A DNA stretch of 64,000 nt, from NCBI GenBank assembly GCA_020849275.1, contig JADLGO010000011.1:1-64000 (forward strand), given 5' to 3'. Under the pieces are notes generated by a model. The model was not told the DNA's origin, did no database searches, and saw only the letters and a program-made list of their open reading frames with translations. A program made the translations under genes and the position numbers. Source of the DNA: Chthonomonadales bacterium (lineage in GTDB: Bacteria > Armatimonadota > Chthonomonadetes > Chthonomonadales > CAJBBX01). This document shows positions 30,521-36,748 of the stretch, piece by piece (positions within the stretch are counted from its first letter, which is position 1; each line of letters begins with the position of its first letter).

Positions 30521-31051
30521 TCACGTGCGCAGGCGGCCGGGTGCCTCGGGCGCGTCCGGCGCCGGATCGGCGCGGCGGTCGGCGCCCGCGGCGGGGCCTC
30601 CGCACGCGATGCGCCACGCGAGCAGCAGAATGCCGACGCTAATGGCCGAGTCGGCGATGTTGAAGACCGGCCACAGGTTACGGCCGGCAGCGCTGTGGAT
30701 GTTGAAGAAGTCCTGAACGTAGCCCAGGCGCATTCGGTCCACCAAGTTGCCAAGCGCGCCGCCCAGCGCGAGCGCGATACCGGCGCTCGCCCACAGGTCC
30801 CGGCGCTGGAACCGGTGGTAGGCCAACCCGAGCGCGGCGGCGGCGACCAGCGCCACCACGATGAAAACCCCGTTGCGCGCCTGCAGCAGGCTGAAGGCGC
30901 CGCCGGTGTTCTGGGTGGGAGTGAGCGAGAGCCAGCCCGGCACGATCGGCCGGCTTTCGCCGTAGGTCAGCGCCCCCATCACTGCCCACTTGGAGACCTG
31001 ATCCGCGCAGACGATGGCCGCCACGACCGCGTAGAAGCGCAGCGAGGCCAT
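30521..31051 (-). CDS. lspA: Lipoprotein signal peptidase (signal peptidase II)
   Basis: 176 residues, four membrane segments. Catalytic aspartates in GNLVDRMRLGYVQDFF and FNIADSAIS; also NTGGAFS and the early DQVSKW. Its ATG overlaps the TGA of the upstream zinc-finger gene (TGATG), an efficient coupling arrangement. The C-terminal tail is Ala/Arg/Pro-rich and variable. Works directly after Lgt. Confidence 0.95.
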   Translation of the reverse strand: MASLRFYAVVAAIVCADQVSKWAVMGALTYGESRPIVPGWLSLTPTQNTGGAFSLLQARNGVFIVVALVAAAALGLAYHRFQRRDLWASAGIALALGGALGNLVDRMRLGYVQDFFNIHSAAGRNLWPVFNIADSAISVGILLLAWRIACGGPAAGADRRADPAPDAPEAPGRLRT

Positions 31052-31410
31052 CACCGCTCCAGGGCAGTCTGGCAGGCGATGCAGAACGCAGCGTAGGGCA
31101 GCGCGCGCAGGCGCTCCTCGGCGATCGGCCGGCCACACTGCAGGCACTTCCCGTAGGTGCCGGCCTCGATGCGGGCAAGCGCCTCGTCCACCTGCCGCAG
31201 GACCCTCTGGACGTTCGCCTCGAGCGCGGCCTCCTTCTCGCGCTCGAACACCTCCGTGCCGATGTCGCCTGGATGGTTGATGTCGTAGTCGGTAAGCTCG
31301 CCGAGCTCCTCCGACATGCTCTCACTCTCATCGAGCGCATTCCGTTCGAGTTCCAGCCGCTCGCGTTCCTCGAGAAGCCGCTTGCGGTACCCCTCGGTGT
31401 CGATAGCCAT
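31051..31410 (-). CDS. DksA/TraR-type C4 zinc-finger protein
   Basis: 119 residues. N-terminal charged coiled coil (RKRLLEERERLELERNAL) with a later acidic turn, then the C4 finger KCLQCGRPI...CIACQ. DksA binds the RNA polymerase secondary channel and with ppGpp adjusts rRNA and amino-acid promoters; shorter relatives with this architecture are common next to lspA and ileS. The coiled-coil-tip Asp pair typical of DksA is not clear here (DYDINHPGD is the nearest), so exact regulatory activity is uncertain. Confidence 0.88.
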   Translation of the reverse strand: MAIDTEGYRKRLLEERERLELERNALDESESMSEELGELTDYDINHPGDIGTEVFEREKEAALEANVQRVLRQVDEALARIEAGTYGKCLQCGRPIAEERLRALPYAAFCIACQTALER

Positions 31411-31419
31411 GGTCTGTTC

Positions 31420-34233
31420 CTAGTCTGGCACGAGCTGCGACACGACGTCGGCGCAGCGCGCGCACAGGTCCGGGTCGGTCTTGCTGACCCCCACGTCCTC
31501 GCGGACGAGCCAGCAGCGAGCGCACTTCGCACCAGGCGCCTGCCCGGCCTCGGCGCGGGCCTGCCCGGCCTCGATCTCGGGGTCGGCGATGATGGCGAGG
31601 TGCGACACCCGGAAGACCGCCGCCAGGTCGGCCGGGAAGGCGAGCAGCCCCTCGGCCGTCGCCGGGTCCACCGTCAACGTCACGCCGGCCTCCAGGGGCT
31701 TACGGAGCCGCTTCTCCTGTCGCGCCGACTCGATGGCGAGGTTCACCGCCTCGCGCAGGGCGAGCACGGGCTCCCAGAGCGCAAGCACATCGAGGTAGGC
31801 GGCGCTTCGCGCCTCCGGGAAATTGGTAAGCTGCACGCTCTCGGCCCGATCGCGCAGGCCCAGAAGCTGCCAGACCTCCTCCGCGGTATGCGAGAGCACC
31901 GGGGCCAGCAGCCCGGCGAGCGTGCTGGCCAACGCGTGGAGCGCCGTCTGCGCGGAGCGCCTCTCCAGGGAGTTGGGCGCCGAGCAGTATAGCCTGTCCT
32001 TCAATACGTCGAGGTAAAAGGCGCTGAGTTCCACCGCGCAGAAGCGGCTTACCGCATGGTACACGCGGTGGAACTCGAAGGCCTCGTAGGCCGCGGCGCA
32101 CTCGGCGACTACGCGGTCGAGTTGTGCGAGCGCCCACCAGTCAATGGAGAGCATGCGGGCCTCGCGCACACCATCGCGCTCCGGCCGGAAATCGTAGAGG
32201 TTGTTCACCAGGAAGCGCAGTGTGTTGCGGATCAGCCGGTAGGTCTGCGCCACCTGATCGATGATCTCGTCGGAACAGCGAACGTCCTCGAAGTAGTCGG
32301 TCGACGCCACCCAGAGCCGCAGGATGTCGGCGCCGAGGTTGCGCACCACGTCGTTGGGCGACACGGCGTTGCCGAGCGACTTGTGCATGGCGCGGCCGGT
32401 CTCGTCCAGCGTCCAGCCGTTCGTGATGACAGCGTCGTAGGGCGCCCGACCGCGCAGGGCAACCGAGATCATGAGCGAAGAGTTGAACCAGCCCCGGTGC
32501 TGGTCGGAGCCTTCCAGGTAGAGGCTGGCCGGCCAGCTCAGACGTGGCCACTCGCCACTGTCCAGGACGGCCAGGTGCGTCGAGCCCGAGTCGAACCAGA
32601 CGTCCAGGATGTCGGTCTCCTTGTCGAAGGCGGTTCCGCCGCAACGCGCGCAGGCGAGGCCGTCCGGCAGGATCTCGGCCGCCGGCGCCTCGTACCAGGC
32701 GTCCGAGCCACGCGCCGCCACCAGGTCGCGCACGGCGTCGATGGCGGCCATGGTCAGGATCTCGCTCCCGCAGGTGCGGCAGTAGAAGGCCGGAATCCCA
32801 ACACCCCAGGCGCGCTGGCGGCTCAGACACCAGTCCGGCCGAGCGGCCACCATCGATCGGATGCGGTTGGCGCTGACCGGCGGAAACCACCGGACGGCCC
32901 GAATCGCCTCGAGCGAGCGCTCGCGGTGCCCGTCATGGTCGATGTTCATGAACCACTGCACGGTGGCGCGGAAGAGCAGCGGGTTGTGGCAGCGCCAGCA
33001 GTGCGGGTAGCTGTGCGCATAGGGCGCGTCCGCCAACAGGTGGCCGGCCTGGCGCAGCGCGCCGACCACGCGCAGGTCGGCCTCGCCCCCCAGGATGCGC
33101 GCTCCCTCGAACTCCTGCCCGGCCTCTGCGGTGAAGGCGCCGGACGGCCCCACGGGACAGAGGACCTCCAGGCCGTAGCGCTGGCCGGTCTCGAAGTCCT
33201 CCTTGCCGTGCCCCGGGGCCGTGTGCACCACGCCGGTGCCGTCCTCCATCGTCACATAGTCGGCGAACACGATGGGCGAGGTGCGGCGAAACAGCGGATG
33301 CCAGGCCACCACGCCTTCAAGGTCCGAGCCGCGGATGCGCCGCACGACGCGCGGTGCGGCACCGGAGAGCAGCCCTCGCGCCACCGCGTCCGCCATGGGC
33401 TCGGCGACCAGGTAGCGGTCGCCGCCGGCCTCCAGCACGACGTAGTTGGCATCGGAGCGCACCGCGACCGCCAGGTTGGCGGGGATGGTCCAGGGAGTCG
33501 TCGTCCAGATGAGCACGTACGTGTTCGGCGGATCGGCGGCATCACCACCGAAGACGCCGGCCGGGTCACGATGCACCGGGAACCGGACGTAGATGCTGCG
33601 CGAGGTGTGCTCGCGGTACTCCACCTCGGCGTCGGCGAGGGCGGTCTCGCAGGCGGCGCACCAGAGCACCGGCTTCAGGCCGCGGTAGACGTAGCCGCGC
33701 TCGGCGAGTTGCCCGAAGACGTCGACGATCCGCGCCTCGAACGAGGTGGTCATCGTCAGGTAGGGATGGTCCCAGTCGCCGCGCACCCCGAGCCGCCGGA
33801 ACTGCTCCTTCTGCGCTGCGACCCAGGTCGTCGCATACTCGCGGCACCGGCGGCGCATAGCGACGCGGTCCGGCGTCTCGCCGGCCTCGCGGAAAGCGCG
33901 CGCCACGTTGTTCTCGATCGGCATGCCGTGGTTATCCCAACCGGGAACATAGGGCACGCAATAGCCGCACATCGTGCGATGCTTGACGATGATGTCCTTG
34001 GCGATCTTGTTGAGGGCGTGGCCGAGATGGATGTCGCCGTTGGAGTAAGGCGGGCCGTCGTGCAGCACGAAGGCGCCGCGCGGCGCCTCCTTCTCCAGGG
34101 AGAGGCGGTAGAGATCGATCTCGTCCCAGAACCGCTGGATCTCCGGTTCGCGTGCCGGCAGGTTGGCCCGCTGCGGCATGGCGCCGGGCTGGTTGTCGCT
34201 CAGCGTAACGTTGAGTGTCTTCCGGTAGTCCAT
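31420..34233 (-). CDS. ileS: Isoleucyl-tRNA synthetase
   Basis: 937 residues. Class I signature HLGH (residues 69-72) in PPYSNGDIHLGHALNK, KMSKS equivalent in GRAMHKSLGNAVSP, editing domain with WTTTPWTIPAN, and a C-terminal zinc finger CARCWLVREDVG...CARC. Charges tRNA-Ile and edits valine. ATG at 34233 is chosen by homology (MDYRKTLNV); the longer frame runs into the promoter-leader element. Expressed from 34347-34376 with a hairpin leader; heads the run ileS-dksA-lspA-lgt-E1alpha-E1beta-E2. Confidence 0.97.
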   Translation of the reverse strand: MDYRKTLNVTLSDNQPGAMPQRANLPAREPEIQRFWDEIDLYRLSLEKEAPRGAFVLHDGPPYSNGDIHLGHALNKIAKDIIVKHRTMCGYCVPYVPGWDNHGMPIENNVARAFREAGETPDRVAMRRRCREYATTWVAAQKEQFRRLGVRGDWDHPYLTMTTSFEARIVDVFGQLAERGYVYRGLKPVLWCAACETALADAEVEYREHTSRSIYVRFPVHRDPAGVFGGDAADPPNTYVLIWTTTPWTIPANLAVAVRSDANYVVLEAGGDRYLVAEPMADAVARGLLSGAAPRVVRRIRGSDLEGVVAWHPLFRRTSPIVFADYVTMEDGTGVVHTAPGHGKEDFETGQRYGLEVLCPVGPSGAFTAEAGQEFEGARILGGEADLRVVGALRQAGHLLADAPYAHSYPHCWRCHNPLLFRATVQWFMNIDHDGHRERSLEAIRAVRWFPPVSANRIRSMVAARPDWCLSRQRAWGVGIPAFYCRTCGSEILTMAAIDAVRDLVAARGSDAWYEAPAAEILPDGLACARCGGTAFDKETDILDVWFDSGSTHLAVLDSGEWPRLSWPASLYLEGSDQHRGWFNSSLMISVALRGRAPYDAVITNGWTLDETGRAMHKSLGNAVSPNDVVRNLGADILRLWVASTDYFEDVRCSDEIIDQVAQTYRLIRNTLRFLVNNLYDFRPERDGVREARMLSIDWWALAQLDRVVAECAAAYEAFEFHRVYHAVSRFCAVELSAFYLDVLKDRLYCSAPNSLERRSAQTALHALASTLAGLLAPVLSHTAEEVWQLLGLRDRAESVQLTNFPEARSAAYLDVLALWEPVLALREAVNLAIESARQEKRLRKPLEAGVTLTVDPATAEGLLAFPADLAAVFRVSHLAIIADPEIEAGQARAEAGQAPGAKCARCWLVREDVGVSKTDPDLCARCADVVSQLVPD

Positions 34234-34296
34234 TGGTTCGGTCCGTTTCCCGTCGTCCTCCCGGCGGGCAGCCAGCGCGCGGTCTCCCGCGGCCTC

Positions 34297-34357
34297 ATGC
34301 GGAAACGACCCCGCGCAGTTGCGGGGTCGCACCGGGTGGTCTTTCCATTATAGCGCA
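34297..34357 (-). repeat. 61-bp promoter-leader repeat, copy 1 (ileS)
   Basis: Matches 36439-36499 at 55 of 61 positions without gaps. On the minus strand it contains the -10 box TATAAT and, starting about 20 nt later, CGACCCCGC-N6-GCGGGGTCG, a perfect 9-bp RNA hairpin. This is followed by GTTTCCGCAT, identical in both copies. The hairpin sits at the predicted mRNA 5' end. Confidence 0.85.
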
Positions 34358-34376
34358 GGCGGGCGGCCTCGCGCAA
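34347..34376 (-). promoter_or_regulatory. ileS promoter within the repeated element
   Basis: TTGCGC (34376-34371), 18-bp spacer, TATAAT (34352-34347), read on the minus strand. TGCGC precedes the -10 in both copies. Confidence 0.75.
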
Positions 34377-34410
34377 ACCGCCGCTGCGCGGCGCCGCGCC
34401 CGCGGGCCGG

Positions 34411-34453
34411 CGACGCCCGACGCCCCCGCAGGCGAGGGGGCGCCCGGCGTCGG
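34411..34453 (-). terminator. GC-rich hairpin after the TPR protein gene
   Basis: Arms of 17 nt (34411-34427 and about 34436-34452) pair at about 15 positions. It lies 4 bp past the TPR gene and insulates it from the ileS promoter. Confidence 0.55.
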
Positions 34454-34456
34454 GTG

Positions 34457-35512
34457 CTACCTGGCTGCGGGTTGCGCTTCCGGCGGGTAGGGCGGAGGCC
34501 CGATCCGCTTGAGCTGGTCGAGCCATGCGGCGATGCTCTTCGCTTGCTTCGCCGCGTCCTCGGCCATCTCTCCGCCTCCGAGGCGCGCCGCCCGCTCGAA
34601 GCGCCGCTGCGCCTCCGGGAGCTGCTTCTGCCGCCGGAGCACCCGGCCGATCCAGTAGCTGACAGTCGCGCTGCGCGGGGCCAGCCGGTCGGCGGCCAGC
34701 AGGTCGCGCGGCGCGTTCGACAGGCTCATGGTCATCGATTCCACGCCCCGAACCGTCAGGGCGCTCGCCTCGATGCCCGCCACGGTCCGCTCCACCCGCG
34801 GGTCCTCGCCTGCCAGCCACCGCGCGCCCGGATTCCGCTGCCCGGCGCGCCGGTAGGCCGTGAGCGCCCCGGCGGAATCACGGACCCGACAGAAGGCGAT
34901 GAGCATGCCGTAGTGGAGCGCAGAGCAGGAAGTGTGCTCCTGGCAGGCCAGGTAGCACTGGAGCGCCTCCGCGCTGCGCCCCTGCGCCAGCAGGATTTCG
35001 CCCGGGAGCACGCTGTTGATGGCCCGCGGGCGCGGCGGAGGCGGCAGGAGACGCGGCGAAAGAAGGACCCACTGGCCGTTCCTCAGCCCAACGTGATCCG
35101 CCACGAGCTGTGGCGGCGGGTCATAATGCGGCTGCAGCGCGAGGTACGTGCGGAACGCCGCCTCCGCCGCGCCGTAATCACCCGCCCAGTAGAGCTCCTG
35201 GGCGCGCACCATGAACTTGGAGCCGCGCTCGCGGGCCGCCGCGACCTCCGGAGGAGGCGGAACGGTTACGCCGCCGCTGAAGATGCGAGGCCGATGCTCC
35301 TCTCCCGCAGAGGCTCCTTCCGGCGGCTGCTGCGCCAGGGCTGGCGCGGCGACTATCATCGTCAGGGGCGCGAGGACGAGACACAGCACGGAACCAGTAC
35401 GCCGCTGCCGCCCTCGTGTTGGGCCTGGGATGGCACAGCTACTCGGGAACCCATATGCTTGCGCTGTTGCTGCTTCCTCGCCAACGCGGATGCTCAGGGC
35501 AGGACGTGTCAC
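34457..35512 (-). CDS. Secreted tetratricopeptide-like protein
   Basis: 351 residues if GTG 35512 is the start. A hydrophobic export segment (SVLCLVLAPLTMIVAAPALA before QQ) lies about 40 residues in, behind RGRQRRT. Such a long N-region is unusual, so the true start may be GTG 35389 or may have been lost. The mature part contains helical pairs typical of TPR: FMVRAQELYWAGDYGAAEAAFRTYLAL, LAQGRSAEALQCYLACQ, and LPEAQRRFERAARLGG near the end. It probably mediates protein-protein contacts in the envelope. The gene lies between a relic frame upstream and the ileS promoter downstream. Confidence 0.72.
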   Translation of the reverse strand: MTRPALSIRVGEEAATAQAYGFPSSCAIPGPTRGRQRRTGSVLCLVLAPLTMIVAAPALAQQPPEGASAGEEHRPRIFSGGVTVPPPPEVAAARERGSKFMVRAQELYWAGDYGAAEAAFRTYLALQPHYDPPPQLVADHVGLRNGQWVLLSPRLLPPPPRPRAINSVLPGEILLAQGRSAEALQCYLACQEHTSCSALHYGMLIAFCRVRDSAGALTAYRRAGQRNPGARWLAGEDPRVERTVAGIEASALTVRGVESMTMSLSNAPRDLLAADRLAPRSATVSYWIGRVLRRQKQLPEAQRRFERAARLGGGEMAEDAAKQAKSIAAWLDQLKRIGPPPYPPEAQPAAR

Positions 35513-35826
35513 CGCTCATGTGTCGACCAGGGCCGCTGAATGCCCAGACACCAGGGAACACGTCCCAGTCGAGTCGTGCTGTCCAGTCCCACGACCAGCT
35601 CACCAGCGGTACCCAGCGGCTGTCAGGGCTCGGCGGAAGGTACATCAGGTAGGTCGTGAGACCGTCAGTCCGGGTGATCCCCCTGGCGTCGGGCTCCAGG
35701 CCGGTGTTGGGGGAGTCCTCCCCCTGGCGCCGACTGCCGTCGGCAACGAACGGTGTGGTCGGGCTCGTTGGGTGCGGGTATGGGTACGCCCCGTCCAGCC
35801 CTCCCGTGCACGCCTCGCGCGTCCCG
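35439..35826 (-). pseudogene. Possible remnant of a secreted-protein gene
   Basis: The minus-strand frame ending at TAG 35439-35441 stays open to the end of the next gene, about 390 bp, and reads very unlike a chance GC-rich frame: GAYPYPHPTSPTTPFVADG, then DGLTTYLMYLPPSPDSRW, WSWDWTARLDWD, FPGVWAFSGP. It has no start codon with a ribosome site; the only ATG codons lie late, at 35645 and after. It overlaps the proposed 5' end of the TPR gene. Probably the 3' part of a truncated gene; family unknown. Confidence 0.4.
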
Positions 35827-36420
35827 TCACCGTTTCCAGGCGAAGCTCGCGTGCAGCTTCGCGAACGCGGCCGCCAGCCGCCGGGGCTCCGTGGCCCGCA
35901 TCGTGAGCGCCAGCACGAACAGCCTCGCCCCGCGTATGCAGTACGCCGTGCGCGTCAGCGTCGCCGGCCCCGCGCCCCACGCCCGCACCGTGCGGATCAG
36001 CGCCGGGGCGCCGCCGAGCTCACCGCGCGTCTCACGCACGACGCGGACGCCGCGCAGGCGCGCGATGCGCCGGCGCATCTCGCGGCCGAACTCCGCCAGC
36101 GACATGCTGGGCGCGGGACGCGCCGTGAAGGTGACGTTCGGCCGGAACCCCGGCCGGGCCGGGGGCGCGCGCAGAACGCGCTGCGCGCGCGACAGGAACT
36201 CCATCGTCGTCTCGCCCGGCGAAACTCGGCGCGCCGGCTCGGCGCGCGCGCCGGGCCGAATGAAGACGGCGACCGCGCCCGCGTGCCGCACACGCGCCCA
36301 TCCCGCCGGCGGGTCGAACGCGCACCCAAGCGCCGCGTTGCGGTAGTGCGGATCCCCGTCGGCAGGCGCCGCCATCACGGTCGCCGCCAGAAGCGCGCCG
36401 AGCGCGCCCGGGCGTCCCAT
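35827..36420 (-). CDS. Secreted protein resembling the DUF1795/PsbP-like family
   Basis: 197 residues. Signal peptide about 1-22. The mature start YRNAALGCAFDPPAGWARV, with a hydrophobic strand AVAVFIRPG after it, and the late TAYCIRGARLFVLALTM followed by an amphipathic end helix (RLAAAFAKLHASFAWK), match the PsbP/DcrB-like fold. Such proteins sit in the envelope with varied roles. GGGAGGTGG 7 nt before ATG gives strong translation. It is expressed from the second copy of the promoter-leader element shared with ileS. Confidence 0.72.
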   Translation of the reverse strand: MGRPGALGALLAATVMAAPADGDPHYRNAALGCAFDPPAGWARVRHAGAVAVFIRPGARAEPARRVSPGETTMEFLSRAQRVLRAPPARPGFRPNVTFTARPAPSMSLAEFGREMRRRIARLRGVRVVRETRGELGGAPALIRTVRAWGAGPATLTRTAYCIRGARLFVLALTMRATEPRRLAAAFAKLHASFAWKR

Positions 36421-36438
36421 CGCGCGGCCACCTCCCGT

Positions 36439-36499
36439 ATGCGGAAACGACCCCGCGCGGTTGCGGGGTCGAGCCAGGTGGTCTTCTCATTATAGCGCA
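36439..36499 (-). repeat. 61-bp promoter-leader repeat, copy 2
   Basis: See copy 1 at 34297-34357. The six mismatches fall outside the stem: one in the hairpin loop, the rest between the -10 box and the stem. The stem itself is identical. Confidence 0.85.
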
Positions 36500-36517
36500 C
36501 GAGGAGCGATGGCGCAA
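36489..36517 (-). promoter_or_regulatory. Promoter of the DUF1795-like gene within the repeated element
   Basis: TTGCGC (36517-36512), 17-bp spacer, TATAAT (36494-36489) on the minus strand. The neighbouring rightward -10-like TACAAT at 36575-36580, which could serve the oxidoreductase at 36749, lacks a good -35. The rest of 36581-36748 is untranslated leader with nothing recognised. Confidence 0.75.
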
Positions 36518-36748
36518 ATCGGCGGGGTGGGGCCGCGGCGCGCTCTACAGGGGCCGGCGCGGCTCGGCATACGGTACAATAAGGTGGCGAAGTGCGTGAG
36601 ACCGGAGCCGCGGCCGTGCGCCCGAGCCGCAGGCTCTCCGGAAGGAGCCCCCCGTGTCCGCGGCCCGCCTACCGGAGGCATCACCTCCGCTCGACACACT
36701 CGCGCGCGAGCCGGCGGCTCGACGTTGCGCCGTGCTTTGGAGGGACAC

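What the first reader, a model, noticed from the sequence alone, without database searches (positions are those of the whole stretch)
34297..36499. A 61-bp promoter plus RNA-hairpin leader is repeated in front of ileS and a secreted DUF1795-like gene
34297-34357 and 36439-36499 match at 55 of 61 bases without gaps. Each carries the -10 box TATAAT (with TTGCGC 17-18 bp upstream just outside the element) and, at the predicted 5' end of the mRNA, a perfect 9-bp stem (CGACCCCGC / GCGGGGTCG) then GTTTCCGCAT. All six mismatches spare the stem, and one is in the loop, as expected if the RNA structure is selected. The genes are unrelated, so the element carries its own regulation. It is not a T-box: no T-box motif is present. 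It could be a new leader RNA, a protein-binding site or a mobile promoter cassette.
Basis: partly seen in the sequence, partly recalled or inferred. Interest (0 to 1): 0.62.

Follow-up and report, generated by a model that had tools for sequence, protein, structure and literature searches.

The report
Conserved ileS promoter-hairpin leader, locally duplicated
A short promoter plus RNA-hairpin in front of the isoleucyl-tRNA synthetase gene has the same stem in another genus of the family, which points to selection, and here it has been copied once to a neighbouring secreted-protein gene; it is a real lineage-specific control element of unknown trigger, not a mobile cassette.

Summary
In detail: two minus-strand copies, 55/61 identical, each with TATAAT and a perfect 9-bp stem spared by all six mismatches. 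The homology extends to a shared -35 (TTTGCGC); this -35/-10 combination occurs only at these two sites in the genome. The spacer between the boxes has diverged freely (8/13 columns) while hairpin plus tail has not (1/33), so the duplication is old and the leader is constrained. There are only two copies in this genome. The same promoter-proximal stem (CGACCCCG/CGGGGTCG, loop 5 instead of 8 nt) lies in front of ileS in two species of another genus of the family. In 12 family genomes it occurs nowhere else; in 85,000 species the promoter+stem pattern gave 14 hits and only those two are beside ileS. A relative of the second gene abuts ileS in a third genus, so local duplication explains the second copy; the mobile-cassette idea is rejected. 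No compensatory change exists: the stem is invariant. T-box, leader peptide and terminator are excluded. Best reading: an ileS 5'-leader RNA hairpin, probably recognised in trans or protecting the mRNA 5' end. In passing: the sister family appears to control ileS with Ile-rich leader-peptide attenuators.

The parts
34371..34377 (-). -35 region TTTGCGC of the ileS promoter
   Evidence: Shared with the second copy; TTTGCGC-N16..20-TATAAT occurs only at these two places in the genome
34347..34352 (-). -10 box TATAAT of the ileS promoter
   Evidence: Sequence; aligned TATAAT in G007, G010 and G004 ileS leaders
34306..34329 (-). Leader hairpin of ileS: CGACCCCGC-AACTGC-GCGGGGTCG (9-bp stem)
   Evidence: 8-bp core stem identical in G007 and G010 ileS leaders; in 12 family genomes only at 4 sites
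34297..34305 (-). Conserved tail TTTCCGCAT after the hairpin
   Evidence: Identical in both window copies; TTCGCGTAT in G007 and G010
31420..34233 (-). ileS, isoleucyl-tRNA synthetase (937 aa)
   Evidence: PF00133, PF08264, PF06827; 60-70% identical to IleS of relatives
36512..36518 (-). -35 region TTTGCGC of the duplicated promoter
36489..36494 (-). -10 box TATAAT of the duplicated promoter
36448..36471 (-). Duplicated leader hairpin CGACCCCGC-AACCGC-GCGGGGTCG
36439..36447 (-). Conserved tail TTTCCGCAT after the second hairpin
35827..36420 (-). Secreted PsbP/DcrB-like protein gene (197 aa) behind the second copy
   Evidence: 38-39% identical to the gene directly upstream of ileS in G002; that relative hits PsbP at 5.6e-5
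34457..35512 (-). TPR-repeat protein gene lying between the two copies
   Evidence: TPR_2, E = 3.2e-10

Best explanation
This is the ileS promoter together with a 5'-leader RNA hairpin that belongs to ileS in part of this Chthonomonadales family. In the window's lineage the promoter-leader unit was duplicated locally, long ago, so that the neighbouring PsbP/DcrB-like gene now uses a copy. Shown: the stem is identical across genera while loop, flanks and promoter spacer diverged, and the element is restricted to these sites. Inferred: transcription starts just after TATAAT, so the hairpin lies within about 15-20 nt of the mRNA 5' end; it acts as RNA, either as a sequence-specific site for a trans-acting RNA-binding factor that tunes ileS expression, or as a 5' cap against degradation. 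The two genes would then be co-controlled.
For: In 12 family genomes CGACCCCG-N3..12-CGGGGTCG occurs only at the two window sites and at the ileS leaders of G007 and G010, control 0. A covariance model finds the same four (E of about 1e-13 or better; next 0.018) in 31 genomes of the order. In 85,000 species the promoter+stem pattern gave 14 hits; only the G007 and G010 records are next to ileS. Between the window copies the spacer changed at 8 of 13 columns and hairpin+tail at 1 of 33, Fisher P = 4e-5. Loop length differs (8 versus 5 nt) with an invariant stem, which suits RNA better than a dimer operator. G004, sister of G007/G010, has an unrelated but very stable hairpin at the same place behind a homologous promoter (z = -4.8).
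Against: No compensatory change exists in the stem, so RNA pairing is not shown by covariation. Only three ileS leaders carry the stem, two of them from one genus. No transcription start, binding partner or expression effect is known. An invariant palindrome could also be a DNA site.
Confidence: 0.6

Rival explanations
1. DNA operator: CGACCCCG/CGGGGTCG is a palindromic binding site for a dimeric transcription factor placed just downstream of the promoter, acting by roadblock or repression.
For: Stem sequence is invariant and palindromic, with no compensatory change; always tied to a promoter in this family.
Against: Half-site spacing differs by 3 bp between genera (8 versus 5), about a third of a helical turn. 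All four sites are perfect palindromes, more typical of hairpins. Only one or two sites per genome. G004 keeps a hairpin but not the sequence.
Confidence: 0.2
2. Generic 5'-terminal stabilising hairpin: the stem only protects the mRNA 5' end, as the ompA 5' stem-loop does, and its sequence does not matter.
For: Position within about 15-20 nt of the inferred start, strong stem; G004 has a different stable hairpin at the same place.
Against: Sixteen of sixteen stem bases are unchanged between genera whose IleS proteins are about 68% identical, which a sequence-indifferent stem would not need.
Confidence: 0.3
3. Shine-Dalgarno sequestration: the conserved 5' CCACC pairs with the downstream SD around the hairpin, giving a translational switch.
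For: Predicted folds pair CCACCU with AGGUGG of the second gene's SD, and CC.CCCGGUG with the ileS leader.
Against: CCACC is absent from G007 and G010; the ileS GGGAGG is over 20 nt from the start codon; folding z-scores of the full leaders are modest (-2.4 and -1.4).
Confidence: 0.1
4. Mobile promoter cassette that inserts in front of unrelated genes.
For: Two copies before different genes.
Against: Two copies only, 2.1 kb apart; relatives carry it only at ileS; the second gene's relative is adjacent to ileS in G002.
Confidence: 0.03

Closest known systems
Translational T-box riboswitch upstream of ileS in Actinobacteria (PMC1262725)
   Same: Structured leader in front of ileS; possible effect on translation initiation
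   Different: No Rfam T-box match even at E = 10; leader of about 110 nt dominated by one strong 5' hairpin
Leader-peptide transcription attenuators of aminoacyl-tRNA synthetase genes (pheST of gamma-proteobacteria; trpS and leuS of Streptomyces; PMC1262725)
   Same: Control of a synthetase gene by its leader; the sister family's ileS leaders look like this
   Different: The window leader has no Ile-rich peptide and no hairpin with a U-run before ileS
5'-terminal mRNA stem-loops that stabilise transcripts (ompA 5' UTR; own knowledge)
   Same: Strong hairpin close to the 5' end
   Different: Here the stem sequence itself is invariant between genera

Membership tests
T-box riboswitch | T-box covariance model match | tested here: not met
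   No T-box hit in the window or relatives' ileS loci at gathering score, nor in 34180-34420 at E up to 10
Leader-peptide attenuator | Short ORF with a run of the cognate codons | tested here: not met
   No ORF with 3 or more Ile in 7 residues upstream of window ileS, G007 or G010; present in several sister-family leaders
Leader-peptide attenuator | Intrinsic terminator (hairpin plus U-run) before the gene | tested here: not met
   No run of 5 or more T in the 350 nt upstream of window ileS, G007 or G010
Structured cis-regulatory leader RNA | Hairpin conserved at the same place in orthologous leaders | tested here: met
   G000, G007, G010
Structured cis-regulatory leader RNA | Compensatory base-pair changes | tested here: inconclusive
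   All 8 core pairs are invariant in 4 sequences: none found, and no test of pairing either way
Structured cis-regulatory leader RNA | Regulatory effect and ligand | not testable with these tools
   Needs experiments
Mobile or dispersed repeat | Multiple dispersed copies | tested here: not met
   Two adjacent copies only

The most novel reading that the evidence does not exclude
The invariant hairpin is a sequence-specific RNA operator bound by a trans-acting protein, possibly IleRS itself, that replaced an ancestral isoleucine leader-peptide attenuator of ileS in this family and was then copied to bring an envelope-type secreted protein under the same control.
Probability: 0.2. Interest if true: 0.65.

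Novelty: new member of a known kind. Interest (0 to 1): 0.38.

Why it matters
It gives an aminoacyl-tRNA synthetase leader in a barely studied phylum that is neither a T-box nor an attenuator, next to a sister family that appears to use Ile-peptide attenuation for the same gene. The order could therefore show how control of one essential gene is rewired between families. The duplicated copy also predicts that a secreted protein is co-controlled with ileS.

Tried and rejected
T-box and other Rfam families: none. More copies in the genome: none by blastn, pattern or covariance model. Promoter-proximal hairpins as a general habit of this genome: in 864 kb, 6 of 102 TANAAT sites have a downstream hairpin against 4 in the upstream control. 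Two of the six are the window copies; by reading, two look like ends of preceding genes and two precede other genes with unrelated stems. Compensatory changes: none; an extended lower helix is not supported. Promoter+stem hits elsewhere in genome contigs are not next to ileS. A first four-way alignment used the wrong strand for two rows and was replaced.

Full report
Observation. The two copies are real and on the minus strand. The 61-bp stretches differ at six positions, one in the loop and none in the 9-bp stem. A 56-nt consensus has two matches in the window and none in 100 shuffles. The homology reaches further upstream than stated: both have TTTGCGC 17-18 bp before TATAAT, and that pair of boxes occurs only at these two places in the 4.8-Mb genome. 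Between the boxes 8 of 13 aligned columns differ, while only 1 of 33 differs in hairpin plus tail (Fisher P = 4e-5). The copies are therefore an old duplication in which -35, -10, hairpin and TTTCCGCAT were kept.

Extent. blastn, the pattern search and a covariance model all find only these two copies in the genome. In relatives, the 8-bp core CGACCCCG/CGGGGTCG occurs in front of ileS in G007 and G010, two species of another genus, right behind a TATAAT; these records are Chthonomonadales MAGs. It occurs nowhere else in 12 family genomes, with 0 control matches. The covariance model gives E of about 1e-13 or better to these four and 0.018 to the next in 31 genomes of the order. In 85,000 species the promoter+stem pattern hits 14 places, of which only these two lie beside ileS.

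Anatomy and evolution. IleS of the window and of G007 are about 68% identical; loops (8 versus 5 nt) and flanks have diverged, yet all 16 stem bases are identical. G004, sister to that genus in the IleS tree, keeps the promoter and the position but has a different, very stable hairpin (z = -4.8). G002 has no such stem in front of ileS; there a gene 38-39% identical to the window's second gene lies directly upstream of ileS with a short gap. The second gene is thus an ileS neighbour in this family, and a local duplication of the ileS promoter-leader is the simplest origin of the second copy. Between the copies lie a TPR gene and about 320 bp with an open stretch that matched no Pfam family.

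Mechanism. Excluded by test: T-box, Ile leader peptide and U-run terminator, dispersed repeat. Remaining: an RNA hairpin recognised in trans or protecting the 5' end, or a DNA palindrome bound by a protein. The 3-bp change of loop length, the perfect palindromes and the unrelated hairpin in G004 favour RNA. The invariance of the sequence favours specific recognition over mere stability. SD sequestration by the conserved CCACC is predicted in both window leaders but CCACC is not conserved in G007 and G010. None of this is proven, because no stem position varies and no transcription data exist.

Side result. In the sister family, ileS is preceded by what reads as classical attenuators: short peptides with Ile-rich ends (WAIIIEITQA, ALIIEIKQA, PIIIIPQA, IFILILQA, VILIL-stop), an immediately following GGCGACG...CGTCGCC hairpin, then a second hairpin with a run of T before ileS, in ten genomes. 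G003, in the window's family, has a peptide ending HAIVII and the first hairpin, but no T-run. The window's lineage lacks all of this, which suggests that the control of ileS was rewired within the order. Attenuators of synthetase genes (pheST, trpS, leuS) and translational T-boxes of ileS are known (PMC1262725); three searches of the held library found no report of an ileS peptide attenuator.

Verdict. A real, constrained, lineage-specific ileS leader element with one local duplicate; the trigger is unknown and interest is moderate.

Noticed in passing
L088, L089, L090, L091, L092, L093, L094, L095, L096, L099 (upstream of ileS): Sister-family ileS leaders look like Ile-specific leader-peptide attenuators: Ile-rich peptide end, GGCGACG/CGTCGCC hairpin, then a terminator-like hairpin with a T-run. 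Pairing alternatives and covariation were not formally tested.
   Followed up: partly
L027 and L064 (G003 ileS upstream): A genome in the window's family has a leader peptide ending HAIVII followed by the same kind of hairpin, but no T-run; a partial group II intron match lies at L027:1-68.
   Followed up: partly
L083 and L085 (Edaphobacter): Two Edaphobacter genomes share TATAAT plus a CGACCCCGG-loop-CGGGGTCGTCTCGTTTAAGCA hairpin upstream of a long ORF; probably an independent conserved leader hairpin.
   Followed up: no
window 35513-35826: Stretch between the PsbP/DcrB-like and TPR genes with an open frame on the minus strand that matches no Pfam family; possibly a gene remnant.
   Followed up: partly
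window 30521-31410, minus strand: A dksA/traR zinc-finger gene and lspA follow ileS on the same strand; lspA also follows ileS in several relatives.
   Followed up: partly
G006, G009, G011 (L033, L034, L035): One genus of the family has only a distant IleS (about 30% identical), suggesting replacement of the synthetase by another type.
   Followed up: no
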